Of a stretch of 64,000 nucleotides of DNA, positions 6,327 to 29,631 are shown piece by piece. The stretch is taken from the NCBI GenBank assembly GCA_028868855.1, contig JAGWTR010000004.1:62001-126000 (forward strand), written 5' to 3'. Made by a program: the position numbers and the translations under genes. The notes under the pieces are model-generated. The model searched no databases. It was not told the DNA's origin and saw nothing but the letters and a program-made list of their open reading frames with translations. The first letter of the stretch is position 1; each line of letters opens with the position of its first letter. The DNA comes from Burkholderiales bacterium (lineage in GTDB: Bacteria > Pseudomonadota > Gammaproteobacteria > Burkholderiales > Burkholderiaceae_C).

Positions 6327-6371
6327 CCCACGTCGGAATCATCAATCAGGCGACCATTCGAAAAATCGCAC

Positions 6372-7685
6372 ATGACACCCAATTCACCCTCCACGCCTTG
6401 TGACGTGTTGGTCATCGGCGGAGGACCCGCTGGTTCGACCATTGCCGCGCTATTGGCCCAACGCGGCATGGGCGTCGTGTTGCTTGAAAAAGCGCAGCAC
6501 CCGCGTTTCCACATCGGCGAGTCGCTCCTGCCGGCCAATGTGCCGCTTTTCGATCAACTGGGTGTGCGCGCAGAAATCGAAGCCATGGCCATGCCCAAAT
6601 ACGGCATCGAGTTCGTCTCAAAATGGCACCAGGAACACACGCTCCTGGAGTTTGGCCAAGCCTGGAACAGGTCCATGGACAAGGCCTATCAGGTGCGACG
6701 CTCCGACTTCGACCACATCCTGATCCGAAACGCGATGCGAAAAGGGGCCCAGGTGCTTGAGAACTGCCGTGTCACGGCGGTCGATTTTCTGCCCGACGAA
6801 ACGGGTGCGGTGGTGCATGCGCAGCATCAGGATGGGGCGAAAGTCGCATGGCAGGCGCGCATGGTGATTGATGCCTCGGGACGTGACACCTTCCTGGCCA
6901 ACAAGTTCAACACAAAGGTCAAGAACAAGAAGCACAACAGTGCCGCCCTCTTCGGCCATTTCACGGGTGCCGAGCGCCTGGCGGGCAAGCTGGAAGGCAA
7001 CATCAGCCTGTTCTGGTTCGAACATGGCTGGTTCTGGTTCATCCCGCTGGCCGACGGAACGACCAGTGTGGGGGCTGTGTGTTGGCCAAGCTATCTCAAA
7101 ACCCGCAAAAACAGCGTCGAACAATTCTTCAGGGACACCCTCGCGCTGTGCCCCGCCCTGAATGACCGACTGAAGAACGCACAACTGGTGTCGGAGGTCG
7201 AGGCCACCGGCAACTACTCCTACAGCTGCACGACGGCGCGGGGCCCCAACCACCTCCTGCTCGGCGATGCCTACTCCTTCATCGACCCGGTTTTTTCGTC
7301 TGGCGTCTTCCTGGCCATGAACAGCGCTTTCGTCGCCGCCGATGTCGTGCAGGCGACGCTGCGCGAGCCACGCAAACTGCCCGCTGCCGTCCGTCGGTTC
7401 GACCGGGTCATGCAACAGGGCCCGCGCGAGTTCTCGTGGTTCATCTACCGGGTGACCAACCCGAGCATGCGTGATTTATTCCTGGCACCCCGCAATATGT
7501 TTCGGGTCAAGGAGGCACTGCTGTCACTGTTCGCCGGGGACATCTTCGGCAAGACGCCGATCTGGCCATCTCTGTATGTATTCAAGGCCATCTATTACAT
7601 CGCCTCCTTGCTCAATTTTCGGAGAACCCTTGAGGCGGCACGCCGCCGCAAGGTCAACATCGGTGACACGGCTCAAGCCCGTTGA
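6372..7685 (+). CDS. FAD-dependent halogenase-fold oxidoreductase of the aryl polyene locus (first copy)
   Basis: 437 residues. VIGGGPAGSTIAALLA near residues 14-29 is the FAD-binding GxGxxG region. Three marks linked with flavin-dependent halogenases are visible: a lysine in a K-x-G context at K76 (MPKYGIEF), WFWFIP at 220-225 (the WxWxIP motif) and FIDPVFSSG at 303-311 (an FxxPxxSxG pattern). It opens the plus-strand pigment unit, followed by the chorismatase. Halogenation of the aryl head group, as in brominated xanthomonadins, is therefore plausible. Many proteins of this superfamily are hydroxylases or reductases, so the halogenase role is inference. Confidence 0.75.
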   Translation: MTPNSPSTPCDVLVIGGGPAGSTIAALLAQRGMGVVLLEKAQHPRFHIGESLLPANVPLFDQLGVRAEIEAMAMPKYGIEFVSKWHQEHTLLEFGQAWNRSMDKAYQVRRSDFDHILIRNAMRKGAQVLENCRVTAVDFLPDETGAVVHAQHQDGAKVAWQARMVIDASGRDTFLANKFNTKVKNKKHNSAALFGHFTGAERLAGKLEGNISLFWFEHGWFWFIPLADGTTSVGAVCWPSYLKTRKNSVEQFFRDTLALCPALNDRLKNAQLVSEVEATGNYSYSCTTARGPNHLLLGDAYSFIDPVFSSGVFLAMNSAFVAADVVQATLREPRKLPAAVRRFDRVMQQGPREFSWFIYRVTNPSMRDLFLAPRNMFRVKEALLSLFAGDIFGKTPIWPSLYVFKAIYYIASLLNFRRTLEAARRRKVNIGDTAQAR

Positions 7686-7708
7686 CGTGCGGCAAGGTCA
7701 AGGTAGTC

Positions 7709-8761
7709 ATGAGTCAGTTGCAGTTTGATTACATCCCGCTTGAAGAGTTGGACCTGTGGGTGAAGGCCATCAGGCAGGGCGATCGGCCTCGTCAAGTTCT
7801 CGGTTTGACCCTGTTTGACGGGTCTGAGTCATCCCGTCGCCATCCATCTGAAACACTGGAGACACGCGCATGGCCACAGGTCGCGCTGCCAACTCTGGGC
7901 GATGCGCGGACCACCTGGGTCGAGGTGTGGTCGGTTCCCGCCGATATCGGCCCCGTAGTCCACGGCGAGACTGCCGGCGTATCGCATGTGTCCAGCGCAG
8001 ACCTCGTCTTTGCGTGGCTCACAAAGCCCTTGATGGGGCCGGACGTCGCCCTGGAACTTGCGACCCAGCACGCCTACGATGCCGTGTTCCACGCATTGGC
8101 AGAACTGGGTTACCCGCATCCGCTGCGCTTCTGGAACTACCTGCCCGACATCCTCGGGGCCAACCAGGGCGAGGAGCGTTACCGCCTGTTCAACAAGGGT
8201 CGCCATGCGTCGTTCGCACAACATGCGCCCGCGATTCAGAACAGTCCGCCAGCGGCGTGCGCCCTGGGCCATCCGGAGGGCTTGGCCGGCCCGTTGACGG
8301 TCTATGTGATCGCGTCCCGCCAGCCGGTCCAGCCCATCGAAAATCCACGGCAAATCAGCGCTTACCGATACCCTCCTGACTATGGCCCGCGCAGCCCCAC
8401 GTTCTCACGGGCCGCCGTGGCGCAACTGGGCCAGGAAGACGCCTTGTTCATTTCGGGCACCGCCAGCATCGTGGGGCACGAAACCGTGCACGTCGGCAAC
8501 GTGCAGGCGCAGACTGAGGAAACGTTGAACAACATTGAGGCGGTGCTCAATCGCATGGCACTGGCCAGGCGGGGCAAACCATGGCGAACCACCGACTTGC
8601 GATTCAAGGCCTATGTGCGACATGCCGCTGACCTGCACGCGGTGCGCGAGGTGATCTTGCGCCGCCTGGGTCCATCGGTGTCCTGCCATTACCTGCATGC
8701 GGTGGTCTGCCGCCCAGACCTTCTGGTCGAAATCGAGGCGACTTGCGCCACAAGCCATTGA
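7709..8761 (+). CDS. Chorismatase / XanB2-FkbO family hydroxybenzoate synthase
   Basis: 350 residues from an ATG 24 bp after the previous stop (an upstream in-frame TTG is less likely). Family marks are HAYDAVFHALAELGYPHP (121-138), RFWNYLPDI (140-148), GEERYRLFNKGRHASF (154-169), FISGTASIVGHETVHVGN (247-264) and the C-terminal CRPDLLVEIEA (334-344) with the conserved acidic residues. XanB2 of Xanthomonas hydrolyses chorismate to 3- and 4-hydroxybenzoate, which feed xanthomonadin and ubiquinone. This gene would supply the aryl starter here. No tyrosine ammonia-lyase is present in the locus, which supports that role. Product position (3- or 4-hydroxy) cannot be read from the sequence. Confidence 0.9.
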   Translation: MSQLQFDYIPLEELDLWVKAIRQGDRPRQVLGLTLFDGSESSRRHPSETLETRAWPQVALPTLGDARTTWVEVWSVPADIGPVVHGETAGVSHVSSADLVFAWLTKPLMGPDVALELATQHAYDAVFHALAELGYPHPLRFWNYLPDILGANQGEERYRLFNKGRHASFAQHAPAIQNSPPAACALGHPEGLAGPLTVYVIASRQPVQPIENPRQISAYRYPPDYGPRSPTFSRAAVAQLGQEDALFISGTASIVGHETVHVGNVQAQTEETLNNIEAVLNRMALARRGKPWRTTDLRFKAYVRHAADLHAVREVILRRLGPSVSCHYLHAVVCRPDLLVEIEATCATSH

Positions 8762-9642
8762 TGATGAGCCATTCCTTTAGCGCCTTGTCGCGCCCCTTGA
8801 TCCTGACGGCCATGCTTTGCGCCTGGGCAGTACAGGCACGCGCCCAGACGGATGCCCCAGCAGGCCACGGCGCGTTGAAGCCCTTGTGGGAGGCGGGCAT
8901 GGGCGCTGCCGCCTTGTCGCTGCCGGACTACCGGGGGTCCGATCAAAGTCGGGAGTATGTGCTGCCGATGCCCTACCTGGTCTATCGGGGAGAGTTCATC
9001 AAAGCCGATCGGGACGGTGCCTATGCGCAGCTGTTCAACAACCGCCATGTCAAACTAGGCCTCGCCGCGAGCGCCAATCTGCCGGTGTCGGGCAACAAAA
9101 ACCGTGCACGCGAGGGCATGCCCAGCCTGTCTGGCTCCCTGGAGGTCGGCCCGGCTCTTGACCTGTCTTTGTACCAATCGCCCGACGGCCAGGTCCGGCT
9201 CAAATTCAGGCTGCCGATCAGTGGCGGCATCACGCTCGGCCACGAGTCCCTGTCGTCCACGGGCTGGCAGGCGGCCCCGCACCTGAACGTCGATATCGCG
9301 AACGTCGCCGGTTTGTCAGGCTGGAACCTGGGTGCGCTGATCGGCCCCATTTATGCAGACCAGCATCGCAACGCTTACTACTACGACGTGGCGCCGCAGT
9401 ATGCGCGGGCGGATCGACCTGCTTTCGAGAGCGCTGGAGGGTATGCGGGCAGTCAGTTCGCCACGGCCCTGAGCAAGCGCTTCGATCGATACTGGGTGGG
9501 CGCCTTTGTGCGCTACGACTCGCTGCGCGGGGCGGTGTTCGAAGACAGCGCCCTCGTCAAGAAGAAGAGCTATTTCGCAGCTGGCATCGGCATGGCCTGG
9601 ATCTTCGGCCAGTCGTCCACGCTGGTGCCCGTTGAGGACTGA
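8761..9642 (+). CDS. MipA/OmpV family outer membrane protein
   Basis: About 293 residues. The start ATG at 8761 overlaps the chorismatase stop (TGATG), with a second ATG directly after. The N-terminus carries a signal peptide ending near AWAVQARA-QT. The mature part has alternating beta-strand patterns (LPDYRGSDQSREYVLPMPY, then repeated aromatic strands) and a C-terminal strand typical of MipA/OmpV proteins. Members are outer membrane barrels, some acting as scaffolds or in stress responses. Position inside the pigment unit suggests a role in placing or tolerating the polyene in the outer membrane; this is inference. Confidence 0.85.
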   Translation: MMSHSFSALSRPLILTAMLCAWAVQARAQTDAPAGHGALKPLWEAGMGAAALSLPDYRGSDQSREYVLPMPYLVYRGEFIKADRDGAYAQLFNNRHVKLGLAASANLPVSGNKNRAREGMPSLSGSLEVGPALDLSLYQSPDGQVRLKFRLPISGGITLGHESLSSTGWQAAPHLNVDIANVAGLSGWNLGALIGPIYADQHRNAYYYDVAPQYARADRPAFESAGGYAGSQFATALSKRFDRYWVGAFVRYDSLRGAVFEDSALVKKKSYFAAGIGMAWIFGQSSTLVPVED

Positions 9643-9657
9643 CATGGGAATGACCGC

Positions 9658-10446
9658 ATGATGACCCTGCGCGCTTTGGTTCAGTACCCGCTGTTTTATC
9701 TCGGTCTGTTCGTGCTCGGCGTGATGTGCCTGGGTATTTGCATAGTCGCCTGGGCTTGGCGGCCGCTCCTGTCGATTGACAAGGGTCGGGAAATTGGCCG
9801 TGCGGCCATCAGCCACGGTTTCCGCAGCTACTTTGCCTTCACCAGTTGGCTGGGCATGACCCGCTTTGAACTGGATGAACTGGACGCCCTCAATGGCGAG
9901 CCATCGATGATCCTGGCGGCCAATCACCCCACTTTCCTGGATGCGGTTTTCCTGGTCTCGCGCCTGAAAAACGTGGGCTGCATCATGAAGTCCGATGTGC
10001 TGGACAACCCATTTCTGGGCGCCGGCGCACGTCTGGCGGGCTACATCCGCAATGACAGTCCGCGCAACATGGTCCGCCAGTCGATTGCCGATTTGCAGCA
10101 GGGGAGCCACCTGCTGGTGTTCCCTGAAGGCACTCGCACCATCAAGCCGCCTGTCACCGAGTTCAAGCCAGGCGTTGCGCTCATTGCCCGAGGAGCGCAG
10201 GTGCCGGTGCAAACCATCTTCATCGAAAACAGCTCGCCTTTCCTGTCCAAGGGCTGGCCCATCCATCACAGGCCTCCGAGCTTTCCAATGGTTTTCCGTG
10301 TCCGGCTGGGTCAGCGCTTCACCGTCTCAGACAATCCAAAGCTGTTCACGCACAAGCTACAACAGTATTTCGAGCGCGAACTGGCCACGGCAGAGCTGAC
10401 CATGATGCCTCGCTCATCCTCGTTGGAGCAAGCCGTTCATGAGTGA
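9658..10446 (+). CDS. PlsC-type 1-acylglycerol-3-phosphate acyltransferase family protein
   Basis: 262 residues. An N-terminal membrane segment (residues ~10-33) is followed by the acyltransferase motifs NHPTFLD (HX4D, H90/D95) and FPEGTRT (155-161). The family moves acyl groups from ACP or CoA to a hydroxyl of a lipid acceptor. Aryl polyene loci usually carry such enzymes next to a glycosyltransferase and use them to attach the polyene to a lipid-like anchor. The last 8 bp overlap the GT2 gene, so the two are probably made together. Confidence 0.88.
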   Translation: MMTLRALVQYPLFYLGLFVLGVMCLGICIVAWAWRPLLSIDKGREIGRAAISHGFRSYFAFTSWLGMTRFELDELDALNGEPSMILAANHPTFLDAVFLVSRLKNVGCIMKSDVLDNPFLGAGARLAGYIRNDSPRNMVRQSIADLQQGSHLLVFPEGTRTIKPPVTEFKPGVALIARGAQVPVQTIFIENSSPFLSKGWPIHHRPPSFPMVFRVRLGQRFTVSDNPKLFTHKLQQYFERELATAELTMMPRSSSLEQAVHE

Positions 10447-11233
10447 TTCAAGCCCACCGACATCCGCCTCACGGACCCACTTCGTGCTGATCCCCAGTTA
10501 CAACACGGGTCGGCAGGTGTACGAAACCGTCAAGGCCGCGCGCCGTCAATGGTGCCCCGTGTGGGTGGTGGTCGATGGCAGCACCGATGGCACCGATCAG
10601 GGCTTGCTGGAGATGGCTCGGAAAGACGCGGGACTGAAGGTGTTTGTGCTGCCAGGCAACCAGGGCAAGGGAGCAGCGGTGCTGCACGGCTTGCGCACAG
10701 CCCAGGCCGCTGGATTCACGCATGCCCTGACCATGGATTCGGACGGACAGCATCCAGCCGCCTTGATTCCAAACTTTATGCACGCCTCAACCCAAAAACC
10801 GGACACGATGATTCTGGGCCGGCCGGTGTTCGACGCCAGTGCGCCATTGCTGCGCGTGCGCGGCCGACGCGTGTCGAACTGGTGGACCGACCTGGAGACC
10901 CTGAACGCCGGGATTGGCGATTCGCTGTATGGGTTTCGCGTCTACCCGGTGGCCGAACTCGTTGCGACCATGGCCCACCAACCCTGGATGCGCCGCTTCG
11001 ACTTCGACACCGAGGCCGTCGTGCGCTTGGCCTGGCGTGGTGTCAAACCCATCAACCTTGATGCGCCCGTGAAGTACCTCAATGCCTCAGAAGGCGGCGT
11101 CTCGCACTTCCGGTATGGCCGAGACAACGTGTTGCTCACCTGGATGCACTTGCGGTTGATGCTGGAGTTTTTGTTGCGCCTGCCCGTGCTGGCGACGCAC
11201 CGTCTGATGCGCCGACCGCCGTTCCAGCGCTGA
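10439..11233 (+). CDS. Family 2 glycosyltransferase of the aryl polyene locus
   Basis: 264 residues. GT2 signatures are VVVDGSTDGTDQ (43-54) and MDSDGQHP (99-106, the metal-binding DxD type). Near the C-terminus is a hydrophobic stretch (LRLMLEFLLRLPVLATH) that could lie at the membrane. It is the last gene of the plus-strand unit and ends 9 bp before the stop of the convergent antiporter gene; no terminator is apparent between them. A role in building the sugar or lipid anchor of the pigment is inferred from context. Confidence 0.88.
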   Translation: MSDSSPPTSASRTHFVLIPSYNTGRQVYETVKAARRQWCPVWVVVDGSTDGTDQGLLEMARKDAGLKVFVLPGNQGKGAAVLHGLRTAQAAGFTHALTMDSDGQHPAALIPNFMHASTQKPDTMILGRPVFDASAPLLRVRGRRVSNWWTDLETLNAGIGDSLYGFRVYPVAELVATMAHQPWMRRFDFDTEAVVRLAWRGVKPINLDAPVKYLNASEGGVSHFRYGRDNVLLTWMHLRLMLEFLLRLPVLATHRLMRRPPFQR

Positions 11234-11242
11234 ACCGCTGAG

Positions 11243-12577
11243 TCAGGTCGGCACCTTCACCGCCTGATGGCCCGCAAGTTTTTTGGCGGGCCACAAACCC
11301 AACACTGGCAACCAGGCATTCAAGCCTGGCGCGGTGATGACGGTGCTGACGATGGCCATCAACACCAGCATGGTGAACATCTGCTGAGAGATCACTCCCA
11401 GGTCGAACCCCACATTCAGCACAATCAGCTCCATCAGTGCCCGCGTGTTCATCATGATCCCGAGCACCCTGCCCTCGGCGTGGCTCATGCCAGCCCAGCG
11501 AGCCGCCAGATAGCAGCCGCCGAACTTGCCGGCCGTTGCCAAGGCGATCAGCAACGCCGTCCACCCCCAGGCCGCCGCCGAGTCAAGACCGCCAATGTTG
11601 GTGCGCAAGCCGGTGTAGGTGAAGAAAATGGGCAAGAAAAACACCAACACGAAGGCCCCGACCTTTTCTTTCCAGGCCGCCACCAACGCGGTCTCGTCAT
11701 GCAGGATCACGCCGGCCATGAAGCCGCCGAAGATGGCGAAGATGCCCAGTTGATAGGTGGCGATGCCGCCCAGAAACATCACGGCGACCAGGATGCCCAT
11801 CAGTGTTGGCGGCAAGGCGTCAGTCCCGACCTTGAAGCGGTGCACCACGCGCTTGAGCAGGGGCCGCACCAAGAACCAACTGAGCATGAAGAACACCGAC
11901 ACCATCAGCACTTTCAGAGCAAAGGCCATGGGTTCGAAATGGGAAACCGTGATGGTGGTGACCAGGGCGAGCAACAGCCAGCCCACCACATCATTGATGG
12001 CGGCAGCCGAGATGGCAATGACGCCGATGGGCGTGCGCGTCAGATTGAACTCCATCATGATCCGGCCCAGAATGGGCAGCGCCGTGATGGAAAACGCGAT
12101 CGCCACAAACAGGCTGGACGCCAAAGGATCGGCATGAGGCGACAAAATGGGCGCGACCGCATAACCAAACGCCAGGCCCAGGCCGAAAGGCGCCGCCAGA
12201 CCAGCCAGCGCCACACCCCACACCGCCTTGCGATGGCGCTTCTCGGTCAGGTGCGAAAAATCAAACTCCAGGCCAATCTGGAACATCAGCATGATCAGAC
12301 CGATCTGCGAGAGGATGGTCAGCGGCGCGGCAGGCACTGATCGGAAAACGTAGTGAAAGACCTCGGGCATCACGAGCCCGAAGAGGGACGGCCCCAGCAG
12401 AATGCCGACCACGATCTCGCCCACGGCGGGTGACTGCCCCATGCGATTGGCCAGGTGGCCGCCAAGGCGCGCCGCCATGACGATCACGATCAACTGCAGC
12501 AGGACGAAATACAGCAGCATTTCGCTTTGGTGCACGGCACTGGCAGCGATGCCTTGCGCGACAGATTCGCCACTCAT
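11243..12577 (-). CDS. CPA2-family cation:proton antiporter, last gene of the aryl polyene operon
   Basis: 444 residues, about 12-13 membrane segments. Marks of the CPA2 (KefB/NapA-type) family are GHLANRMGQSPAVGEIVVG near residue 40, SQIGLIMLMFQIGLEFD and the ion-site AAINDVVGW in mid-protein. No C-terminal RCK/TrkA-N domain is present, so it is not a full KefB/KefC. Its ATG overlaps the ketoreductase stop (ATGA), which ties its expression to the pigment operon. The transported cation and its role in pigment formation are unknown; powering export or balancing pH is a guess. Confidence 0.9.
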   Translation of the reverse strand: MSGESVAQGIAASAVHQSEMLLYFVLLQLIVIVMAARLGGHLANRMGQSPAVGEIVVGILLGPSLFGLVMPEVFHYVFRSVPAAPLTILSQIGLIMLMFQIGLEFDFSHLTEKRHRKAVWGVALAGLAAPFGLGLAFGYAVAPILSPHADPLASSLFVAIAFSITALPILGRIMMEFNLTRTPIGVIAISAAAINDVVGWLLLALVTTITVSHFEPMAFALKVLMVSVFFMLSWFLVRPLLKRVVHRFKVGTDALPPTLMGILVAVMFLGGIATYQLGIFAIFGGFMAGVILHDETALVAAWKEKVGAFVLVFFLPIFFTYTGLRTNIGGLDSAAAWGWTALLIALATAGKFGGCYLAARWAGMSHAEGRVLGIMMNTRALMELIVLNVGFDLGVISQQMFTMLVLMAIVSTVITAPGLNAWLPVLGLWPAKKLAGHQAVKVPT

Positions 12578-13308
12578 GAAGGCATGCCTCCGTTGATGGA
12601 AATCACCTGGCCGCTGATATAGGCCGCGGCATCGGAGGCCAGGAAGGCCACCAGGTCGGCCACCTCGCGGGGCTGGCCGGCGCGCTTCATGGGCACCATC
12701 TGGGCGATGACGGCTGCATCAAAGGCTCCCTTGGCCATGCTGCCCTCGATGATGCCCGGCGCCACCACATTGACGGTGATGCCGCGGCTGGCGAGTTCCA
12801 GCGACAAGGATTTGGACGCGCCGTGCAGGGCCGCCTTGGCCGCTGCATAGTTAACCTGACCACGGTTACCCACCACGGCCGCGATGGACGACACGCTGAT
12901 GATGCGCCCCCAGCGGGTGCGGATCATGGGCATGCTCAAGGGCTGCGTGACGTTGAAGAAGCCGTGCAAGGAGACATCGATGACGCGGTGCCATTGCTCG
13001 GCGCTCATGCCGGGGAAGACCGCGTCGTCATGGATGCCGGCGTTATTGACCAACACCTGGATGGCCCCCTCGGCCAGCAAGGTGTCCAGACTGGCGGCGC
13101 TGGCCTGCGCATCACGCACATCAAAGGCGACGGCGCTGGCCTGACCGCCGGCATCGGTGATGTCGCGCACCACCTCTTGCGCCCGCTCCAGGTGCGAGTT
13201 GGCGTGAACGATCACGTGGTAGTGCTCGGCCAGCCGCTTGCAAATGGCCGACCCAATGTCGCCGCTGCCGCCGGTGACCAAGGCACGCTTGAGACTTTTG
13301 TCCGTCAT
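12574..13308 (-). CDS. 3-oxoacyl-ACP reductase (FabG-type) of the aryl polyene pathway
   Basis: 244 residues. A short-chain dehydrogenase with TGGSGDIG near residues 12-19 (NADPH loop), NNAG, catalytic Ser in SVSSIAAV and YAAAK. It ends in VISINGGMPS, as FabG proteins do. It would reduce the beta-keto group after each elongation by the pigment ketosynthases. It overlaps the upstream dehydratase and the downstream antiporter by ATGA, so all three are translationally coupled. It corresponds in role to the ketoreductase of known aryl polyene loci. Confidence 0.92.
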   Translation of the reverse strand: MTDKSLKRALVTGGSGDIGSAICKRLAEHYHVIVHANSHLERAQEVVRDITDAGGQASAVAFDVRDAQASAASLDTLLAEGAIQVLVNNAGIHDDAVFPGMSAEQWHRVIDVSLHGFFNVTQPLSMPMIRTRWGRIISVSSIAAVVGNRGQVNYAAAKAALHGASKSLSLELASRGITVNVVAPGIIEGSMAKGAFDAAVIAQMVPMKRAGQPREVADLVAFLASDAAAYISGQVISINGGMPS

Positions 13309-15774: not shown

Positions 15775-15812
15775 GGGTCGTCAGCAGTCAAGGGCAGCAA
15801 GAACGCGCGACT

Positions 15813-17415: not shown

Positions 17416-17419
17416 CAAC

Positions 17420-19072: not shown

Positions 19073-19074
19073 GC

Positions 19075-21937: not shown

Positions 21938-21940
21938 GAG

Positions 21941-24319
21941 TCAAGCCCCCACAGGCCGCGCCGGACGGCTCAACACCGCCGACAAGACCAGGGCCAGGAT
22001 CGCACCGGGGCCCACCGTGGCACCCATGGCATGCAGCACCGGTACCTGCGACCAGGCCAGCATGCCAAAACCCGCCACCGTGGTCAGGTTGGCAAAGAGC
22101 ATGGACGACAGGATGGAGGCATTCGCCGCCCCCAGATGGGCGCGCTGGTCGAAGAACAAGGCGTAGTTCGAGCCAATGGCCACGATCAACAGCAGGCCGA
22201 CCAAGTGAAATAGCGTCAAGGGCGGGCCGGTGGCGACCAGCCCCGCCGCCACGATCAGCACCGTGGCCAGCAAAGGCGCCACCACCCGCAGCAAGCGACC
22301 AGGCGAGCGCAATACGAGGGCCAGCAGAATCACGATCGCCACACCGCCCAGGAGCGACAGCCGGATGACCTCGCTCAGGTAGTCCGAATACAGCGTCTCG
22401 GACTCGGCCTTGAGGTCAATGAAGTGGAGCTCGCCGCCACTCACCGCGGATCGCAACAGACCCCTGATGCGATCTGGGGAGGCGCCGGAGTCGGTCGGCA
22501 AACGCAAACCCACCAGCGCCGTCCATTGGCCAGACTGGCGCATCAGCAAGGAGTCGACCCCCAGCGCCAATGAACTGCCCTTCAGGTCCTCTCGGGTAAG
22601 GGGAGGCAGGCGTTTGGCCTCGGCCGCATCGGCGAAGAAGGCCTCGAATTTTTCCGGCTTGAGCGGCAAGCCGCGCGCGGCCTGTGCAAACCGGGCACGC
22701 AAGGCAACGGCCTCTGGCAAGGCCGCTTGACGCCGCTTCTGCATGGCCTGGCTGGGCAGATAGCGTGCCGGGCTGTCAATGCCCAGCAGTGCCCCTTCGT
22801 CAATCAGAGGCGTCAGCGCCAAGCCAGCCTGCTCGGCCCCCTGCAAGGCCGCTTCGATGTCAGGCGCACGCACCACCACCAGATAGCGCACATCGGGCGC
22901 ACCCAGATCGGCGCGCAAACGCATGTCCAGGTCTTGCGCCGCTGGGGAAATCGGGCTGAGCGAGCTCAACTCGCGGCTCCACAAGCGGTCCCGGTGCATG
23001 AGCAACACGGCCAGCGCACCGACCAGCACCAGCACCACGATCCAGCGCACCGACGCTGCGCCCGCCGCCCAGCGCGTCAGCCTGGCATCCAGGCCTGGCG
23101 TTGGCCTGATCCGAAAGCCGGCGGGAATCAAGCGGGGCAAGACCCAGCGGGTCACCAGGGCGGCCGACAGGATGCCGACAATGGAAAACAACCCCAGTTG
23201 CGCCAGCCCTGGAAAGCCCGAGGCCAACATGGCCGCAAAACCGATGATCGAGGTCAGCACACCCACACTCACCGTGGGCCAGAAACCCGACGCGCCATCG
23301 CTGCCATCACTGTCCTGCCCACCGCGCTGCACGAACAAGTAGATCGCATAGTCGACCGCCTCGCCAATCAAGGTGATTCCAAAGCCCAGCGTGATGCCAT
23401 GCACGACACCAAAGCCCCAGGCCACCGCCGCGATGCCCGCCAGCGCCCCGCTCGCCATAGGCAGCAAGCCCAGCAGCAAGGCACGTGGCGAACGGTAGAT
23501 ACTCAACAACAAAGCGATGATGATGCACGAGCCCATGAGGGACAAGCGCTTCGCTTCGGACTCGATGGTGTGCCGCGACTGCGTTGCAAAGACGGCGGGG
23601 CCCGAGATCAGCAAGCGCGCCTGGGTCAAGCCTTCGCGCTGACGGGCCTCATCGAACTGCTGCCGAATCGCATCAATGGCCCGCTGCTGCGCATCGAGGT
23701 CCGACCCATCGGCCTGGGTCTGGGCCACCAGCACCGCGCGTCGCTGGTCCTTGGACACCCACACCCCGTCCACGGTCGCGCGCTCGCCGCCCGAGTCCAT
23801 GGCCTCGACCAGATGGACCAGTTCTGCGGTCGGATCTCGCGTGAGCAAGGGCTGAAGCATGAGCCCGGCCGAGGAGCCCAGCAGGTCAAGGCTGTCCAGC
23901 AACGCTGCGTGCAAGCCCTCCGCCTCAAAGCGGGACGCGCTGACATCAGGGCTGAGCAAATAGCGGTAGCGCAGCAGCACGGCTTGATCGCTCTGCGCCG
24001 AAACCGGCTCACCATTGTTGACCGAGGTGAACCATGGTTGTTGACGCATGGCTCTGGCCAGTGCCTTGGACAAACGCGCCAGATGACGTGCCGCCTGCGG
24101 ATCGCGGTCATCGCTTTCCAGGCCAATGAGGATCAGGCGCGACGCCGGACCCTCCTTCAACTGATCGATCAGAACCGCCTGCGCCGGCGTCGGCCTGCTT
24201 GGCAGAAAAGCCGACAGGTCCGCCGTGTAGCGGGCCCGAATGACGGCCACGACGCACACGGCCAGCAAAGCCAGCCAGATGACGACCGCCAGCAGACCCT
24301 TGGAGCGGCGCTCGGTCAT
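21941..24319 (-). CDS. MMPL/RND-type exporter of the aryl polyene locus
   Basis: 792 residues from ATG 24319 (a TTG two codons earlier overlaps the LolA stop). The topology is that of an RND/MMPL protein: one N-terminal helix, a large periplasmic loop (residues ~30-240), five to six helices (SLMGSCIIIALLLSIYRSP to WVLPRLIPAG), and then the whole pattern repeated in the C-terminal half. The motif GFGITLIGEAVDYAIYL in the first half is typical for this family. It likely moves the polyene-lipid from the inner membrane, working with the LolA-like carrier encoded just upstream. Confidence 0.9.
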   Translation of the reverse strand: MTERRSKGLLAVVIWLALLAVCVVAVIRARYTADLSAFLPSRPTPAQAVLIDQLKEGPASRLILIGLESDDRDPQAARHLARLSKALARAMRQQPWFTSVNNGEPVSAQSDQAVLLRYRYLLSPDVSASRFEAEGLHAALLDSLDLLGSSAGLMLQPLLTRDPTAELVHLVEAMDSGGERATVDGVWVSKDQRRAVLVAQTQADGSDLDAQQRAIDAIRQQFDEARQREGLTQARLLISGPAVFATQSRHTIESEAKRLSLMGSCIIIALLLSIYRSPRALLLGLLPMASGALAGIAAVAWGFGVVHGITLGFGITLIGEAVDYAIYLFVQRGGQDSDGSDGASGFWPTVSVGVLTSIIGFAAMLASGFPGLAQLGLFSIVGILSAALVTRWVLPRLIPAGFRIRPTPGLDARLTRWAAGAASVRWIVVLVLVGALAVLLMHRDRLWSRELSSLSPISPAAQDLDMRLRADLGAPDVRYLVVVRAPDIEAALQGAEQAGLALTPLIDEGALLGIDSPARYLPSQAMQKRRQAALPEAVALRARFAQAARGLPLKPEKFEAFFADAAEAKRLPPLTREDLKGSSLALGVDSLLMRQSGQWTALVGLRLPTDSGASPDRIRGLLRSAVSGGELHFIDLKAESETLYSDYLSEVIRLSLLGGVAIVILLALVLRSPGRLLRVVAPLLATVLIVAAGLVATGPPLTLFHLVGLLLIVAIGSNYALFFDQRAHLGAANASILSSMLFANLTTVAGFGMLAWSQVPVLHAMGATVGPGAILALVLSAVLSRPARPVGA

Positions 24320-24321
24320 CG

Positions 24322-24990
24322 TCAATTGGGCGCCACGGCAACAGGTGACGAGGCCTCACCAACGACGGGCGCCGGACCACTTTGCGGCGTGACCTCCATG
24401 ACGGAGCGGTCGCCATTGCCTTGCAGGATCTCGATGACCTCGACATGGTCGCGCTGGCCACTCAGACGCACCTGGTTGACCAACTGCGCGGCTTTGGCGT
24501 CCAAGGGGTACAGCAGCAACTGCCAGCGTTCGCGCTTGCCTTGCAACTCGACCCGATAGTTGCGGTCCAAGGCCTTGCGGTCGCCCGCCAACGTGGCGCG
24601 GATGCTTTCAACAAAAGCACCCACTTGCGGATAGGACTGCAAGGCCAGACTGCGCTTGCGCCCTTGCCGCTCGAAGATCAGCACCTCCTTGTCCAACACC
24701 AGGGATTCAGGGCGGGGCTTGAGCGTGCGCTTTTCAAGGCGATCGGGCGCCAGGTACAACAACTCACCCGAGGACTCCAAGGGAACCTCAACCGCGCTCA
24801 GGTATTTTTGTTCGACGAAGCTGGCGCGGCTGGATTTGGTCTGCGCGAGCAACTGCATCAAGGTGTCGACGTTCCACACCTCGGCTTGCGCCATGCCCGC
24901 CATCAGCATGCCGACAGCACATAGCGCGGCAGCAATGACACGCCGCGCGGTCTTTGCCGGCTCAAGGGTTAGACGGTCTCTTGGCATCAT
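24322..24990 (-). CDS. LolA-related outer membrane carrier protein
   Basis: 222 residues from ATG 24990 (the next codon is also ATG). A signal peptide precedes AQAEVWNVD (cleavage likely after AGMAQA). The mature part shows the LolA-like start LMQLLAQTKSSRASFVEQKYL and alternating strands (GELLYLAPDRLEKRT, YRVELQGKRERWQLLLYP). The reading frame can be extended upstream, but those codons lie inside the acyltransferase gene and are not conserved-looking. LolA homologues in aryl polyene loci are thought to carry the lipid-linked pigment across the periplasm. It overlaps the acyltransferase gene by 29 bp. Confidence 0.87.
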   Translation of the reverse strand: MMPRDRLTLEPAKTARRVIAAALCAVGMLMAGMAQAEVWNVDTLMQLLAQTKSSRASFVEQKYLSAVEVPLESSGELLYLAPDRLEKRTLKPRPESLVLDKEVLIFERQGRKRSLALQSYPQVGAFVESIRATLAGDRKALDRNYRVELQGKRERWQLLLYPLDAKAAQLVNQVRLSGQRDHVEVIEILQGNGDRSVMEVTPQSGPAPVVGEASSPVAVAPN

Positions 24991-25876
24991 GCTGGCCAAA
25001 TTCTTCCCAGAAATCATAAAAGTTGAACCAGTTGTACGGGGCTCGCTTGCAAAAATACTCGAGGCGACTGACGTACAGATCGATGGTCTGCTCGACGCTG
25101 GGGCCACCTGGTTTGGAGAAATCGGCCAGCTGCTCAAAATGTATCTCATAGCGCTTATCCCCCAGGTACAGCCCCACGATCAACATCACGGGGCGCTTGA
25201 GCATGGCCGCCAGCCTGAACGGCCCGATCGGAAAACTGGCCGGACTGCCCAACATCTCGACGCGGCGCCCGGACTCGTCCCCGATCGTGCGGTCGCACAA
25301 CATGCCGACCAACTCACCACGATCCAGGCTGTGCTTGACGCGCAGCATCGAATCCACATGTCCCAAAGCGATGATGTTGGGTTGGAGTGCCGGGTTGATG
25401 GCCAACAAAATCTGGTTGAGCTTGACCGCGTTGTCCTCGTACATGACCATCGACACCGTCAGGTCGCCGACATCATGACCCGTGGCGCGCACGGCTTCGA
25501 AGCTGCCCAGATGGGCACCGACCATGACGACGCCGCGTCCTTCAGCCATGGCCTGGTGCACCGCTTCCTGGCCCACCACGCGGGTCTCGAACAGATCGAA
25601 TCGACCGTTGAGCAGGTAAAAGCGATCCAGGATGGTCGACGCAAAGCAGAACACATGGCGAAAACCATCGAGCCAGCCCGGCTCGCGACCCAGCACCCGG
25701 CGCAAGTAGGCCACGGAGGCGCGGCGGGCCTTGGGCACGGCCAGCACAAAATACCAAGTGATGGGGTAGAGCAGCCAACGCGCCACTCGCCGACCCAGAC
25801 GCTGCGCGACCCAGGTGATGATGCGCAGCGCCAGCAGGTTGCTGCGCTCGGTCTGTTGAGTCCAGTCGGTGGCCAT
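24962..25876 (-). CDS. LpxL/HtrB-type lysophospholipid acyltransferase
   Basis: 304 residues from ATG 25876 (MATDWTQQTERS), 1 bp after the dehydratase stop. It has an N-terminal membrane anchor (WLLYPITWYFVLAVP), the HX4E motif HLGSFE at 122-127, CDRTIGDESGRRVEML and a C-terminal aromatic-rich PYNWFNFYDFW. Such enzymes transfer acyl chains to lipid A-like or other lipid acceptors at the inner membrane. In aryl polyene loci one is thought to attach the polyene acyl chain to its anchor. The open frame upstream of 25876 is out of register with the gene and was not used. Confidence 0.9.
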   Translation of the reverse strand: MATDWTQQTERSNLLALRIITWVAQRLGRRVARWLLYPITWYFVLAVPKARRASVAYLRRVLGREPGWLDGFRHVFCFASTILDRFYLLNGRFDLFETRVVGQEAVHQAMAEGRGVVMVGAHLGSFEAVRATGHDVGDLTVSMVMYEDNAVKLNQILLAINPALQPNIIALGHVDSMLRVKHSLDRGELVGMLCDRTIGDESGRRVEMLGSPASFPIGPFRLAAMLKRPVMLIVGLYLGDKRYEIHFEQLADFSKPGGPSVEQTIDLYVSRLEYFCKRAPYNWFNFYDFWEEFGQHDAKRPSNP

Positions 25877-25877
25877 G

Positions 25878-26201
25878 TCAGCCAGCCCGGTGAACCGTGA
25901 TCGTGGCCGTGGCGGCCACACGCGCAGCCCCCTCGCCCACGCGGACCTCAATGGCATACCGGCCAGTGGCCGTGCACGCGTAGGCCAGTCCCAGCGCTTC
26001 GCCGGGGCGCACTGGCTGCAAAAACTTGGCGACCGAAACGTCAATCGCGGCAATGTCCAAGTGTTCGGCGGCCGCGAGGCATTGCAGCGCCTCATCGAGC
26101 AACACGACGCCCGGAACAATCGGATGCCCGGGAAAATGCCCCGCAAACGCCGGGTGGTCCGTCGCGATCAACAAGGGCAAAAAATGAGGCAATGAGGTCA
26201 T
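25878..26201 (-). CDS. FabZ-like 3-hydroxyacyl-ACP dehydratase (first aryl polyene dehydratase)
   Basis: 107 residues. The hotdog motif FAGHFPGHPIVPGVVLLDEAL (20-40) contains the FabZ-type catalytic His (H22) and the Pro-Gly turn. The ATG overlaps the AMP-ligase stop (ATGA). It would dehydrate the beta-hydroxyacyl-ACP intermediate. It differs strongly in sequence from the second dehydratase at 13305-13775; known aryl polyene loci also use two dehydratases, sometimes as a heterodimer. Confidence 0.9.
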   Translation of the reverse strand: MTSLPHFLPLLIATDHPAFAGHFPGHPIVPGVVLLDEALQCLAAAEHLDIAAIDVSVAKFLQPVRPGEALGLAYACTATGRYAIEVRVGEGAARVAATATITVHRAG

Positions 26202-27661
26202 ACTGACGACGCAGATGCATGCGTAGCCTGGGCCGTGCGCCGGGCCAGGTCGAGAAGGGCCGCGTGTGGCAACTTGCCGGTTGCATTGCGCGGCAATGCA
26301 TCGACCAGGTGCAAGGGGCGCGGCATGAAGGCCGGATCAATCCGTTGTCGCAAGGCCGCCTGCAATTGCGCCAGATCGAGGCCGGGCGCCACCACAAAGG
26401 CCATCAGGCGCACCACACCGTCGCCATGGCCCGCATCGTCGGACTCCGGCCAGAAAAAGGCCCCATCGAGCACGCCTGGAATGGCACCCAGTTGAAGATT
26501 GAGATAGGCCAATGAGGTGCGTTTGCCCGCCACATTCACCATGTCCGCCGATCGACCATGCAGGATGAAGTTCGTGCCAGGCGCGTTATCGGCCCCACCG
26601 ACGTGCGGCCTCGCCTGGGCGGCGTCGCACAACTCCAGCACATCGCTCAAAGCGATGGGGGCTTCCAGATGCCCTCCACTGAACCAAACGCGGCCATCGC
26701 GCTCAGTGAGTTGCAAGCCATTGAAGGACAACCATTGCGCAGACTCGGCGCTGCGGCGGGTGGCCAACTGGCCCGTCTCCGTGCTGCCATACACCTCAAT
26801 CAGTGGTGCACCGCAGCGGTGTTCGGCCTCGCGTGCCAAGCGCGATGCCAGCGGGGCGGTGGCCGACACCATGAGATCGACTCCCGGCAAGTCCGCGGAC
26901 TCGGCCAGCCAGGTGCGCAAATGGAAAGGCGTCGTGACCAAGACCTTGGGCGAGGGCAGGCCCGCCAACACGGCGGAAATATCGGCCGGGTAGAAAGGAC
27001 GCTCGGCCACCATGGCCGCCCCACTTTGCCAGGCCAGCAACACGGTGGACTCCAGCCCATACATGTGCTGAGGTGGGACGGTGCCGACCAGGCTGTGGCC
27101 CGAGTCGACCGACAGCCCCAGACGCTGCGCCTCCATGCGGACATTGCGCACCAGAGAGCCCCAGCGCTTGACATGCTCGGTAGGGCGCCCGGTCGAACCC
27201 GAGGTGAAGACACAGGCAATGACCTGATTGGCGTCGATCGCCGGGATCGTCTGCGCTTCATCCGGATCACTCGCCCCTTCGGATCCATGCGGCCGAGGCG
27301 GGTACAAGGTCTGCGGCATGTCCAGGTCCGGCAGTGACTGCTCACTCAGCCCATAGACGTCGGGATGGATGTCACAGACCTGTCGCACCATCTCCTGGTT
27401 GTAGGAAGGTGGCAGCAAGCTGATCTGGCCGCGGGTCATGGCGGCGGCCAGGCCCACGGCAAAGTGGTATCGGTCCGCGCAGGCGTTCAGGACATGGCGC
27501 CGATCCGGCAGGGCGGCGGCCACGCGCACCACGTCCTGCAGAAAGGTACGGACCGTGACGGCCTGGCCCTGCCTGTGCGCGAAGGTCGCGTCCAGCGACG
27601 CATGAACCAACAAGGGCAGCGCGCCGGGCGCCCCCCCGAACGCCACGTCAGCGCCGCTCAT
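26198..27661 (-). CDS. AMP-dependent aryl-ACP ligase of the aryl polyene pathway
   Basis: 487 residues from ATG 27661. It belongs to the ANL adenylating family: FTSGSTGRPTEHVKRW (152-167, P-loop), VPPQHMYGLES (A4 region), EVYGSTETGQLATR (A5) and ILHGRSADMVNVAGKRTS (A7-A8). The catalytic C-terminal Lys lies in PRNATGKLPHAAL. It probably activates hydroxybenzoate from the chorismatase and loads it on the ACP. It overlaps the COG4648-type gene by 14 bp. Ligases of this kind are the starter-loading enzymes of characterised aryl polyene loci. Confidence 0.9.
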   Translation of the reverse strand: MSGADVAFGGAPGALPLLVHASLDATFAHRQGQAVTVRTFLQDVVRVAAALPDRRHVLNACADRYHFAVGLAAAMTRGQISLLPPSYNQEMVRQVCDIHPDVYGLSEQSLPDLDMPQTLYPPRPHGSEGASDPDEAQTIPAIDANQVIACVFTSGSTGRPTEHVKRWGSLVRNVRMEAQRLGLSVDSGHSLVGTVPPQHMYGLESTVLLAWQSGAAMVAERPFYPADISAVLAGLPSPKVLVTTPFHLRTWLAESADLPGVDLMVSATAPLASRLAREAEHRCGAPLIEVYGSTETGQLATRRSAESAQWLSFNGLQLTERDGRVWFSGGHLEAPIALSDVLELCDAAQARPHVGGADNAPGTNFILHGRSADMVNVAGKRTSLAYLNLQLGAIPGVLDGAFFWPESDDAGHGDGVVRLMAFVVAPGLDLAQLQAALRQRIDPAFMPRPLHLVDALPRNATGKLPHAALLDLARRTAQATHASASSV

Positions 27662-28340
27662 GCGCTGGCGGCCCACTTGGCGAGGCCGACCGAAACTGGT
27701 GAAACGAGCGCATGCCGTCCAGGATGGAATGGTGCTGGATGCCGCGCAGCTTGTAGCGGCGAACCAGATACTCGCCCACGAACATCAGACCCACCAACGG
27801 ACTGCTCATCAGGTTTGAAAAAGTGGACCATGCCGCCACCGACGCCCCCAGATACAAGGCCGTTGACACGGTGGCGATGCCCGCGAAGAACAGGGTCCAG
27901 GCCAGCGTCGCGCCACGCGTGAAGGAAAGCACCTCAGGAGGCATGTCGCCGTCACGCAGGATGCGGGCAAAGCGGGTCACCAGAGGCTCGCGCCCACCGA
28001 GCAGCGTGTGCCCGAACATCCAGCCCAGGGCCAAGTTGGCGCCAACGTGCTCCAGGTAGTACAAGACACTCAACTCGCCATGCCAGCGCGGCAGCCCCCA
28101 CATCATCAGGGCCACGATCAGCACCCCCAGCACACCGGCCACCGCCCGCCCCCAGTGACTCGCCAGCGATGCGAGCACCATGGCCAGCAACGGCAAAAAA
28201 TACAACCATGGCGCCCAAGGCAAGCGCTGCGTCGTGCCAACGTGACAGGCGATCAGAAAGGCCGAGAGCACGGTCAGACCCACGCAAACCCCCGCAAGGG
28301 TGCGCCAAGTCACAGTCGATCGAGGCAGCGTGGATTTCAT
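27648..28340 (-). CDS. COG4648-type integral membrane protein of aryl polyene loci
   Basis: About 230 residues from ATG 28340 (MKSTLPRSTVTW); a GTG seven codons upstream lies inside a hairpin and is less likely. There are six or so membrane helices (ALAGVCVGLTVLSAFLIACH, WLYFLPLLAMVLASL, VAGVLGVLIVALMMWG, then GATLAWTLFFAGIATVS and more). Charged residues cluster near the C-terminus (VRRYKLRG). Homologues occur in nearly all aryl polyene loci between the ACP and ligase genes; the function is not established. It follows the ACP gene by 45 bp. Confidence 0.85.
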   Translation of the reverse strand: MKSTLPRSTVTWRTLAGVCVGLTVLSAFLIACHVGTTQRLPWAPWLYFLPLLAMVLASLASHWGRAVAGVLGVLIVALMMWGLPRWHGELSVLYYLEHVGANLALGWMFGHTLLGGREPLVTRFARILRDGDMPPEVLSFTRGATLAWTLFFAGIATVSTALYLGASVAAWSTFSNLMSSPLVGLMFVGEYLVRRYKLRGIQHHSILDGMRSFHQFRSASPSGPPAHERR

Positions 28341-28350
28341 GGCAGCGACA

Positions 28351-28373
28351 ACAACCCGCACCCATGCGGGGTT
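28351..28373 (-). other. Stem-loop between the ACP and COG4648-type genes
   Basis: The plus strand reads CAACCCGCA, a 4-nt loop, then TGCGGGGTTG, giving a 9-bp stem with one bulged base. It lies in the 45-bp gap after the ACP stop and before the membrane-protein ATG. No U-run follows on the minus strand. It may stabilise or process the ACP end of the mRNA, raising ACP levels over downstream genes; that role is a guess. Confidence 0.45.
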
Positions 28374-28385
28374 GCTCTGGTGGGT

Positions 28386-28691
28386 CTACTTGGTCCGATT
28401 CGCGGCCACATGTTGGGCCAGGCTTCGCAAGGAACCAAAGATCTCGTTGTTGCGCTCGTCATCGGAGCGCAACTGAAAGCCATATTTCTTGGACACGACC
28501 AGCGCAATTTCGAGGATGTCGATCGAATCGAGCCCCAGACCTTCTCCGTAAATCGGTGCCTGAGGGTCCACTTCGGAGGCCACAAGCTCCAGGTTCAAAG
28601 CCTGAATGATCAGTCCGGTCAACTCCAACTCCAGCACCGGATCAACGGGTGCTGCATCTTGGGTGGCGGGATTTTTCGCTGAGAACTGCAT
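28386..28691 (-). CDS. Acyl carrier protein of the aryl polyene operon
   Basis: 101 residues from ATG 28691 (MQFSAKNPAT); an in-frame start 13 codons upstream adds non-ACP-like residues. The phosphopantetheine site is GLDSIDILEIAL with S56. The acidic helix II and helix III pattern (VSKKYGFQLRSDDERNNEIFGSLRSL) fits an ACP. It is the first gene of the minus-strand pigment operon. Only one ACP gene is visible, whereas the studied E. coli-type aryl polyene loci have two. Confidence 0.9.
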   Translation of the reverse strand: MQFSAKNPATQDAAPVDPVLELELTGLIIQALNLELVASEVDPQAPIYGEGLGLDSIDILEIALVVSKKYGFQLRSDDERNNEIFGSLRSLAQHVAANRTK

Positions 28692-29593: not shown

Positions 29594-29631
29594 CAAGCCA
29601 CAGCATAGCGCAGCGAGCCCTCAGCAAGACA

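What the first reader, a model, noticed from the sequence alone, without database searches (positions are those of the whole stretch)
6372..28691. Complete aryl polyene / xanthomonadin-type locus in two converging units
23 genes with no visible interruption: ACP, ligase, two KS-CLF pairs, two dehydratases, ketoreductase, exporter, LolA carrier, acyltransferases and tailoring enzymes. The set contains most functions of known aryl polyene loci, but the order and tailoring genes differ from the E. coli and Xanthomonas types, so the product may be a new variant. The minus unit is an 18-gene run without a gap over about 45 bp.
Basis: partly seen in the sequence, partly recalled or inferred. Interest (0 to 1): 0.7.

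Follow-up and report, generated by a model that had tools for sequence, protein, structure and literature searches.

The report
Yellow-pigment gene cluster, doubled chain-builder
This is an intact bacterial gene cluster for a yellow aryl polyene pigment of an already described type, made unusual by carrying two different sets of chain-building enzymes, one of them of the kind found in Xanthomonas relatives.

Summary
In detail: 23 packed genes, 5 on plus (6372-11233) and 18 on minus (28691-11243), stops 9 bp apart, largest gap in the 18-gene run 38 bp. It is an aryl polyene locus with a XanB2-type chorismatase, but the order is not new: 20 of 23 genes follow the arcuflavin genes of Azoarcus BH72, and the convergent layout recurs in other proteobacteria. 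No DarB gene was found, so the product should be a plain xanthomonadin-like polyene. Unusual are three genes added between arcN and arcO: a second ketosynthase, its chain-length factor and a halogenase-like flavoprotein. The KS tree puts this pair with Lysobacter, Rhodanobacter and Dyella, the resident pair with the arc type. In five relatives the resident pair is missing from the arc run and a xanthomonad-type pair lies elsewhere in the genome, so it can probably stand in. Here both are kept, apparently under purifying selection. The nearest named relative, Aquabacterium sp. CECT 9606, matches over the part seen; six genus relatives have an empty site between mpl and gdpD. New variant of a known kind; chemistry untested.

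The parts
6372..7685 (+). arcA-like flavin-dependent halogenase-like protein (437 aa, WxWxIP motif)
   Evidence: Trp_halogenase PF04820 2.5e-34; PDB halogenases ChlB4, CmlS, PltA; motif
7703..8761 (+). arcB-like chorismatase, XanB2/FkbO/Hyg5 family (starter 3-/4-hydroxybenzoate)
   Evidence: PF21168 3.2e-27; TIGR04444 216 bits, below its 325-bit cut-off; PDB 5ag3 1.5e-43
8761..9642 (+). arcC-like MipA/OmpV outer membrane protein
   Evidence: PF06629 1.6e-35
9658..10446 (+). arcD-like PlsC acyltransferase (31% to E. coli ApeD)
   Evidence: PF01553; blastp to ApeD 8e-26
10439..11233 (+). arcE-like GT2 glycosyltransferase (39% to part of E. coli ApeJ)
   Evidence: PF00535; blastp to ApeJ 2e-49
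11243..12577 (-). arcG-like CPA2 cation/proton antiporter
   Evidence: PF00999 5.6e-47
12574..13308 (-). arcH-like ketoreductase (47% to ApeQ)
   Evidence: PF13561; blastp to ApeQ
13305..13781 (-). arcI-like dehydratase
   Evidence: no Pfam/NCBIfam match; profile A2 to 6qsr_B 1.3e-11
13766..14587 (-). CLF-b, arcJ-like chain-length factor, arc type
   Evidence: PF13723; CLF tree
14584..15774 (-). KS-b, arcK-like ketosynthase, arc type (48% to ApeO)
   Evidence: NF006618 540 bits over cut-off 407; PDB 6qsp_A 5.6e-75; KS tree
15813..16595 (-). arcM-like SAM methyltransferase
   Evidence: PF13649
16579..17424 (-). arcN-like polysaccharide deacetylase family protein
   Evidence: PF01522 4.3e-33
17420..19078 (-). 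X: added halogenase-like flavoprotein (552 aa, WxWxIP motif)
   Evidence: PF04820 2.8e-10; PDB 3nix, PltA, CmlS; homologues in xanthomonad loci L116 and L121
19075..19971 (-). Y: CLF-a, xanthomonad-type chain-length factor
   Evidence: PF13723; PDB 6qsp_B 1.1e-8; CLF tree
19956..21218 (-). [not shown]
   Evidence: NF006618 499 bits; PDB 6qsp_A 5.7e-65; KS tree
21215..21937 (-). alpha/beta hydrolase (arcO by position only)
   Evidence: PF00756 1.6e-8
21941..24325 (-). arcP-like MMPL/RND exporter
   Evidence: PF03176; blastp to ApeM
24322..25017 (-). arcQ-like LolA-like carrier
   Evidence: PF19574; blastp to ApeL
24962..25882 (-). arcR-like LpxL-type acyltransferase (31% to part of ApeJ)
   Evidence: PF03279; blastp to ApeJ
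25878..26201 (-). arcS-like FabA/ApeI dehydratase
   Evidence: PF07977 above cut-off, PF22818 ApeI-like below its cut-off
26198..27676 (-). arcT-like AMP ligase proposed to load the aryl starter
   Evidence: PF00501; blastp to ApeH 2e-21
27648..28361 (-). arcU/ApeG-like membrane protein (COG4648 type)
   Evidence: blastp to ApeG 2e-11 over 81 residues; no Pfam match above cut-off
28386..28691 (-). arcV-like acyl carrier protein, the only ACP recognised in the locus
   Evidence: PF00550; 46% to ApeE
4941..6326 (+). flank: mpl-like Mur ligase, left edge of the island
   Evidence: PF08245; empty-site comparison
28829..29596 (-). flank: glycerophosphodiester phosphodiesterase (gdpD), right edge of the island
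   Evidence: PF03009; empty-site comparison

Best explanation
An intact arc-type (xanthomonadin-like) aryl polyene locus into which a xanthomonad-type cassette KS-CLF-flavoprotein has been added. Proposed working: the chorismatase turns chorismate into 3- (and/or 4-) hydroxybenzoate; the AMP ligase loads it on the single ACP; KS-CLF pairs add malonyl units; the ketoreductase and two dehydratases turn each into a conjugated double bond; the methyltransferase methylates the aryl hydroxyl; one or both flavoproteins may halogenate; acyltransferases and GT2 attach the chain to a lipid; MMPL, LolA-like and partner proteins bring it to the outer membrane, where it protects against light and oxidants. 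The two KS-CLF pairs are both elongating (ApeO-ApeC) types by sequence; the second pair most likely works on the same ACP and either changes chain length or raises throughput, and is not a relic. Shown here: gene content, order, kinship of the pairs, replacement pattern, conservation, empty site, no DarB match. Inferred: every enzymatic step, product, division of labour.
For: Order of 20 of 23 genes equals arcA-E, G-K, M-V (PMC3949708 Table 1; arcO by position only). Same convergent layout in other genomes. KS tree: KS-a in a 14-row clade at 100/100 with Lysobacter, Rhodanobacter and Dyella; KS-b outside it beside arc types. CLF tree agrees, with Rhodanobacter and Dyella (the Lysobacter CLF is not in that tree): 16 rows 96/99 and 28 rows 96/94. 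Of 10 named genomes searched at 1e-60, the 3 xanthomonads have a KS-a-like gene (62-65%) and no second match near 50% (Dyella has one further 43% match); Aquabacterium CECT 9606 has both types (77 and 49%); the other 6 (Variovorax, Noviherbaspirillum, Methylococcus, two Burkholderia, a Hydrogenophilales MAG) have matches of 49-53% only. In 5 of 5 arc-type genomes of the 200-genome sample without KS-b, the arc run goes from methyltransferase directly to dehydratase and the a-type pair is elsewhere. All 19 genes that could be compared with Aquabacterium CECT 9606 show NG86 dN/dS of at most 0.273. DarB: best 36 bits against a 550-bit cut-off.
Against: No pigment data. Whether both pairs act in one pathway or make two products is open. 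CLF-a has the second-highest dN/dS (0.257, after the chorismatase), so it may be under looser constraint; the second method tried, YN00, failed for 12 of 19 genes, both KS and both CLF among them. The flavoprotein is not tied strictly to the pair: 5 of 14 genomes with it lack a second, low-identity KS at the threshold used, and G142 has the a-type pair with only a 32% flavoprotein match nearby. The chorismatase is not constant in the group: 16 of 43 genomes with the ligase had no match at 1e-30. Azoarcus has a halogenase-like arcA but its pigment is not brominated (PMC3949708), so halogenation cannot be inferred from the gene. No Xanthomonas or Azoarcus sequence was compared directly.
Confidence: 0.72

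Rival explanations
1. The second pair is a transitional redundancy: the xanthomonad-type pair is taking over from the arc-type pair, as seems to have happened in three other genera of the sample, and the two do the same job here.
For: Five genomes of three genera (G091, G197; G110, G212; G142) have the arc run without KS-b/CLF-b and an a-type pair elsewhere.
Against: Both pairs show low NG86 dN/dS between the window and Aquabacterium CECT 9606, and all three genomes with this layout (the window, G004, L117) keep both. The two window KS are 51% identical, enough to differ in specificity.
Confidence: 0.3
2. The two pairs make two separate pigments that share ACP, ligase and reducing enzymes: an arc-type aryl heptaene and a xanthomonadin-type, perhaps halogenated, polyene.
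For: The triplet stands as KS-CLF-flavoprotein apart from the polyene run in 6 genomes (G025, G091, G110, G120, G197, G212), and the same gene types lie near each other in the xanthomonad loci L116 and L121.
Against: Only one ACP and one ligase were recognised in the locus; no independent release or export set accompanies the triplet in the window.
Confidence: 0.2
3. The locus makes an arcuflavin-like polyene-dialkylresorcinol ester.
For: Gene order equals the arc genes.
Against: No DarB in a 99.67% complete genome; the two extra KAS III proteins match FabH-type models far better than DarB. DarA was not searched for.
Confidence: 0.04
4. It is an ordinary E. coli-type aryl polyene cluster, reordered.
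For: 14 window proteins match Ape proteins at E of 2e-4 or better, with best matches ApeC, D, E, G, H, I, J, L, M, O and Q.
Against: No window protein has ApeR as best match (both KS match ApeO better, and ApeR second), and none has a significant blastp match to ApeN, ApeK, ApeF, ApeA, ApeB or ApeP (the ApeP-like dehydratase shows only by profile). Chorismatase and halogenase-like genes are extra.
Confidence: 0.03

Closest known systems
arc loci of Azoarcus sp. BH72 (arcuflavin), PMC3949708
   Same: Same gene set and order (arcA-E, G-K, M-V) for 20 of 23 genes by annotation; XanB2-type chorismatase, AMP ligase, one ACP in the polyene loci
   Different: Azoarcus has two unlinked loci, one KS-CLF pair listed in them, arcF and arcL, two regulator genes, and a dialkylresorcinol cluster; the window has one fused locus, a second KS-CLF pair plus flavoprotein, and no DarB match
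Aquabacterium sp. CECT 9606 locus (L117)
   Same: Identical order over the part held (LpxL-type acyltransferase to mpl), including the added triplet; 59-90% protein identity
   Different: About 660 bp between the converging units by matched positions (9 bp in the window); ACP-side end not held; not seen in the papers searched
Xanthomonad loci (Lysobacter L121, Rhodanobacter L116, Dyella L118) and the published L. enzymogenes cluster (PMC3691225)
   Same: KS-a belongs to the clade of all three, CLF-a to that of Rhodanobacter and Dyella (Lysobacter CLF not in the tree); the flavoprotein is present in L116 and L121
   Different: No second KS near 50% in these three genomes; different gene order; L. 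enzymogenes has no halogenase gene according to the paper
E. coli CFT073 ape cluster (L243; PMC8253772)
   Same: Core KS, CLF, ligase, KR, DH, LolA-like, MMPL and acyltransferase functions; ApeJ matches GT2 and the LpxL-type acyltransferase in separate parts of one protein
   Different: Two ACPs, ApeR, thioesterase and LolB-like genes there; no chorismatase match; all genes in one direction

Membership tests
arc-type xanthomonadin-like aryl polyene loci | chorismatase of the XanB2/FkbO/Hyg5 kind in the locus | tested here: met
   PF21168 above cut-off; TIGR04444 216 bits, under its cut-off of 325; reaction type cannot be told accurately from sequence (PMC3949708)
arc-type xanthomonadin-like aryl polyene loci | KS followed by a half-size CLF-like protein | tested here: met
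   two such pairs
arc-type xanthomonadin-like aryl polyene loci | gene order arcA-E, G-K, M-V | tested here: met
   20 genes in that order by annotation (against Table 1); three genes inserted between N and O; arcO by position only
arc-type xanthomonadin-like aryl polyene loci | yellow polyene pigment | not testable with these tools
   needs extraction and mass spectrometry
arcuflavin (polyene-dialkylresorcinol hybrid) | dialkylresorcinol synthase DarB in the genome | tested here: not met
   best match 36 bits, cut-off 550
E. coli / Acinetobacter ape type | second ACP (ApeF) and homodimeric KS ApeR | tested here: not met
   one ACP recognised; both window KS match ApeO better than ApeR
Xanthomonas pig cluster | KS-CLF of the xanthomonad clade | tested here: met
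   KS-a and CLF-a only; Xanthomonas itself was not among the loci
Xanthomonas pig cluster | gene order of Xanthomonas | not tested
   no Xanthomonas locus was fetched; Lysobacter, Rhodanobacter and Dyella orders differ
flavin-dependent halogenases (A and X) | FAD fingerprint and WxWxIP motif (motifs recalled) | tested here: met
   nearest solved structures include halogenases
flavin-dependent halogenases (A and X) | halogenating activity | not testable with these tools
   needs enzyme assay or isotope pattern of the pigment

The most novel reading that the evidence does not exclude
A natural hybrid polyene synthase: two elongating KS-CLF pairs from two lineages share one ACP and hand the chain between them, giving longer or differently halogenated polyenes than either parent system; KS-CLF(-flavoprotein) is an exchangeable cassette across aryl polyene loci.
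Probability: 0.25. Interest if true: 0.55.

Novelty: new variant of a known kind. Interest (0 to 1): 0.4.

Why it matters
[quoted passage not shown] The pattern found here (one pair in most relatives with the ligase, the other pair alone in five, both together in the window and two Aquabacterium-like relatives) is a ready-made natural experiment on whether KS-CLF pairs are interchangeable and what each contributes.

Tried and rejected
Reading the neighbourhood of the stand-alone triplet: stop-to-stop frames in GC-rich DNA were ambiguous, so the neighbours of the triplet outside arc loci were not identified. The flavoprotein tree is weak: 7 of 14 search loci were skipped because only plus frames were scanned, the outgroup branch is very long, and the deep order is unresolved, so I rest nothing on it. 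Conserved glutamine of the CLF (Q166 of L. enzymogenes, PMC3691225): a glutamine stands at the column I took for it in both window CLFs, in 14 of 16 a-type and 25 of 41 other rows; it does not separate the types. A dialkylresorcinol ester was rejected. dN/dS by YN00 failed for 12 of 19 genes. A promoter/terminator scan of 6200-6600 gave nothing useful. KS tree: 64 of 86 extracted rows plus 2 window rows were used; dropped were the rows of L123-L138 other than L124, L129 and L131, and rows over 470 aa, among them the a-type KS of G197 and G073, which are placed by the CLF tree instead. CLF tree: 54 of 56 extracted rows plus 2 window rows and ApeC; the Lysobacter L121 CLF is not in it.

Papers: PMC3949708 parts 1-3 of 5 and passages; PMC3691225 outline, part 1 of 2 of section 4, and section 8; PMC9542644, PMC8253772 and PMC8358021 passages; all others only as search listings, among them PMC10558695, the one paper holding both 'Aquabacterium' and 'arylpolyene', which I did not open. 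A doubled KS-CLF pair in print was looked for only; the supplementary tables of PMC3949708 (Variovorax, Dechloromonas, Sideroxydans) could not be read, so a doubled pair listed there would have been missed.


Full report
What is there. The stretch 6372-28691 holds 23 genes: five on the plus strand (6372-11233) and eighteen on the minus strand (28691-11243), ending 9 bp apart. Within the minus run the largest gap is 38 bp and 14 of 17 neighbours overlap, so translational coupling is likely. Domain searches and comparison with the E. coli CFT073 ape genes give: halogenase-like flavoprotein, chorismatase, MipA/OmpV protein, PlsC acyltransferase and GT2 on plus; on minus from the ACP end: ACP, ApeG-like membrane protein, AMP ligase, FabA/ApeI-like dehydratase, LpxL-type acyltransferase, LolA-like carrier, MMPL exporter, alpha/beta hydrolase, KS-a, CLF-a, 552-aa flavoprotein, polysaccharide deacetylase, methyltransferase, KS-b, CLF-b, second dehydratase, ketoreductase, CPA2 antiporter. 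The second dehydratase has no Pfam match, but a profile of 29 relatives matches chain 6qsr_B, named a FabA/FabZ dehydratase (that 6qsr is the Xenorhabdus ApeI-ApeP pair is recalled). Both KS are closest to chain 6qsp_A and CLF-a to 6qsp_B; PMC8358021 names 6QSP as ApeO-ApeC from Xenorhabdus doucetiae. Against the E. coli genes, 14 window proteins match at 2e-4 or better; both KS match ApeO best and ApeR second; ApeN, K, F, A, B and P get no significant blastp match.

Known order. Table 1 of the arcuflavin paper (PMC3949708) lists arcA halogenase, B chorismatase, C MltA-interacting/outer membrane, D acyltransferase, E glycosyltransferase, F, G Na/H antiporter, H reductase, I dehydratase, J N-terminal KS domain, K ketosynthase, L, and in a second locus M methyltransferase, N deacetylase, O, P exporter, Q LolA, R acyltransferase, S dehydratase, T ligase, U, V ACP. 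The window reads A B C D E, then G H I J K, M N, three extra genes, O P Q R S T U V. Twenty of 23 genes thus sit in the published order by annotation (O by position only; I had no Azoarcus sequence). The paper shows by insertion mutants that arcK and arcT are needed for the pigment, supports 3-hydroxybenzoate as the starter by feeding a fluorinated analogue, and infers a nonbrominated aryl heptaene.

Breadth. In a sample of 200 genomes of the same family, 43 have a ligase match at 1e-55 or better, 44 a KS match at 1e-80 or better and 29 a chorismatase match at 1e-30 or better; 16 of the 43 with the ligase have no such chorismatase match, so the starter may come from elsewhere in them. Many held stretches end before the whole locus. 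Aquabacterium sp. CECT 9606 (L117) has the window's order over the part held, from the LpxL-type acyltransferase to mpl, including the extra triplet; proteins are 59-90% identical. The same-genus genome G004 has the whole order. Close matches to the 552-aa flavoprotein were found in 2 of 15 same-genus genomes, the window's own and G004.

The extra triplet. Between N and O lie KS-a, CLF-a and a 552-aa flavoprotein. In the KS tree (66 rows) KS-a belongs to a 14-row clade at 100/100 holding Lysobacter arseniciresistens, Rhodanobacter and Dyella and a-type genes of the window's family; KS-b lies outside it among arc-type genes. The CLF tree (57 rows) gives the same split (a: 16 rows, 96/99, with Rhodanobacter and Dyella; b: 28 rows, 96/94). 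One further member of both a-clades is a MAG labelled Candidatus Planktophila, an actinobacterial name; I suspect a binning error. Of ten named genomes searched with KS-a, the three xanthomonads have an a-type KS at 62-65% (Dyella also a 43% match), Aquabacterium CECT 9606 has both types (77 and 49%), and the remaining six have only matches of 49-53%. The flavoprotein holds an FAD fingerprint and WxWxIP; the 13 relatives looked at have WxWxIP too. It is nearest a flavoprotein/dehydrogenase (3nix), PltA and CmlS among solved structures. The legend of Figure 5 in PMC3691225 speaks of halogenase genes flanking the KS-CLF pair, absent in L. enzymogenes and Xylella.

Replacement pattern. In the 200-genome sample, of 43 genomes with the ligase, 32 have only KS matches of 56% or more to KS-b, 5 have both such a match and a lower one (the window, G025, G073, G120, G215) and 6 have only lower ones. 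One of the six, G218, has a run without deacetylase, methyltransferase and facing GT2 unit and a KS outside the a-clade, so it is another type. In the other five (G091, G197, G110, G212, G142; three genera) the arc run passes from the methyltransferase directly to the dehydratase, without KS-b and CLF-b, and an a-type pair lies elsewhere in the genome. KS-a membership rests on the KS tree for four and on the CLF tree for G197. So 5 of 5 arc runs found without their own pair are accompanied by the other type. This is correlation, but it is what interchangeability predicts. The flavoprotein is looser: of 14 genomes with it, 9 have a low-identity KS as well and 5 do not, and in G142 the pair has only a 32% flavoprotein match near it.

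Both pairs are kept. Between the window and Aquabacterium CECT 9606, 19 of the 23 genes could be compared; NG86 dN/dS is 0.067-0.273, with 0.096 for KS-b, 0.129 for KS-a, 0.128 for CLF-b and 0.257 for CLF-a. Synonymous distances are 0.75-1.62 and the second method, YN00, failed for 12 of the 19, so the values are rough. Both pairs look functional, CLF-a least constrained apart from the chorismatase.

An island at a clean site. Of 12 other same-genus genomes searched with mpl, six (G001, G002, G003, G005, G007, G008) have mpl followed at once by gdpD and the Fe-S/FAD oxidoreductase gene, with some 70-180 bp between the matched parts of mpl and gdpD. G004 carries the locus there; the other five gave no answer (no match, contig end, or other neighbours). 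Whether the locus was gained or lost is not settled; GC content does not stand out.

Product. No DarB match above 36 bits against a cut-off of 550, and the two extra KAS III proteins fit FabH-type models far better than DarB. The product should therefore be a xanthomonadin-like polyene, presumably on a lipid, without the resorcinol of arcuflavin. Halogenation is possible but not implied: Azoarcus has arcA and its pigment is nonbrominated.

Role of the second pair. In Acinetobacter, the second KS (ApeR, homodimeric) raises throughput beside ApeO-ApeC (PMC8358021). Here the second KS is closer to ApeO than to ApeR and comes with its own CLF, so it is a second ApeO-ApeC-type pair. I consider division of labour (length or throughput) most likely, simple redundancy next, two products after that; none was tested.

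Papers. Searches did not show, in the listings and passages I saw, a report of an aryl polyene locus with two KS-CLF pairs; supplementary tables could not be read and most subscription papers are not in the library, so this is weak evidence of absence.

Verdict. Real, intact, and of a known kind; the doubled, mixed-lineage KS-CLF set is a new variant worth a simple genetic test.

Noticed in passing
window 4941-6326 and 28829-29596: The locus sits between mpl and gdpD; in six of 12 other same-genus genomes these two genes are adjacent, some 70-180 bp between matched parts.
   Followed up: partly
L122 (MAG labelled Candidatus Planktophila lacus): An aryl polyene locus with xanthomonad-type KS, CLF and flavoprotein under an actinobacterial label; probably a binning error, otherwise a transfer into Actinomycetota.
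   Followed up: no
L231, L232, L235 (genome G120): One genome with two arc-type runs, each with its own KS-CLF, and a further a-type KS-CLF on another contig.
   Followed up: no
L075, L077, L079, L113: A further single KS (37-39% to KS-a) near the flavoprotein in G215, G089, G195 and Variovorax boronicumulans; the three of them that are in the KS tree (L075, L079, L113) form a clade of their own.
   Followed up: no
window 44243-47146: Ribonucleotide reductase barrel-domain protein of 967 aa beside a nitronate monooxygenase; ordinary as far as seen.
   Followed up: no
window 56453-57577: A 374-aa plus-strand frame without a Pfam match at 1e-10.
   Followed up: no
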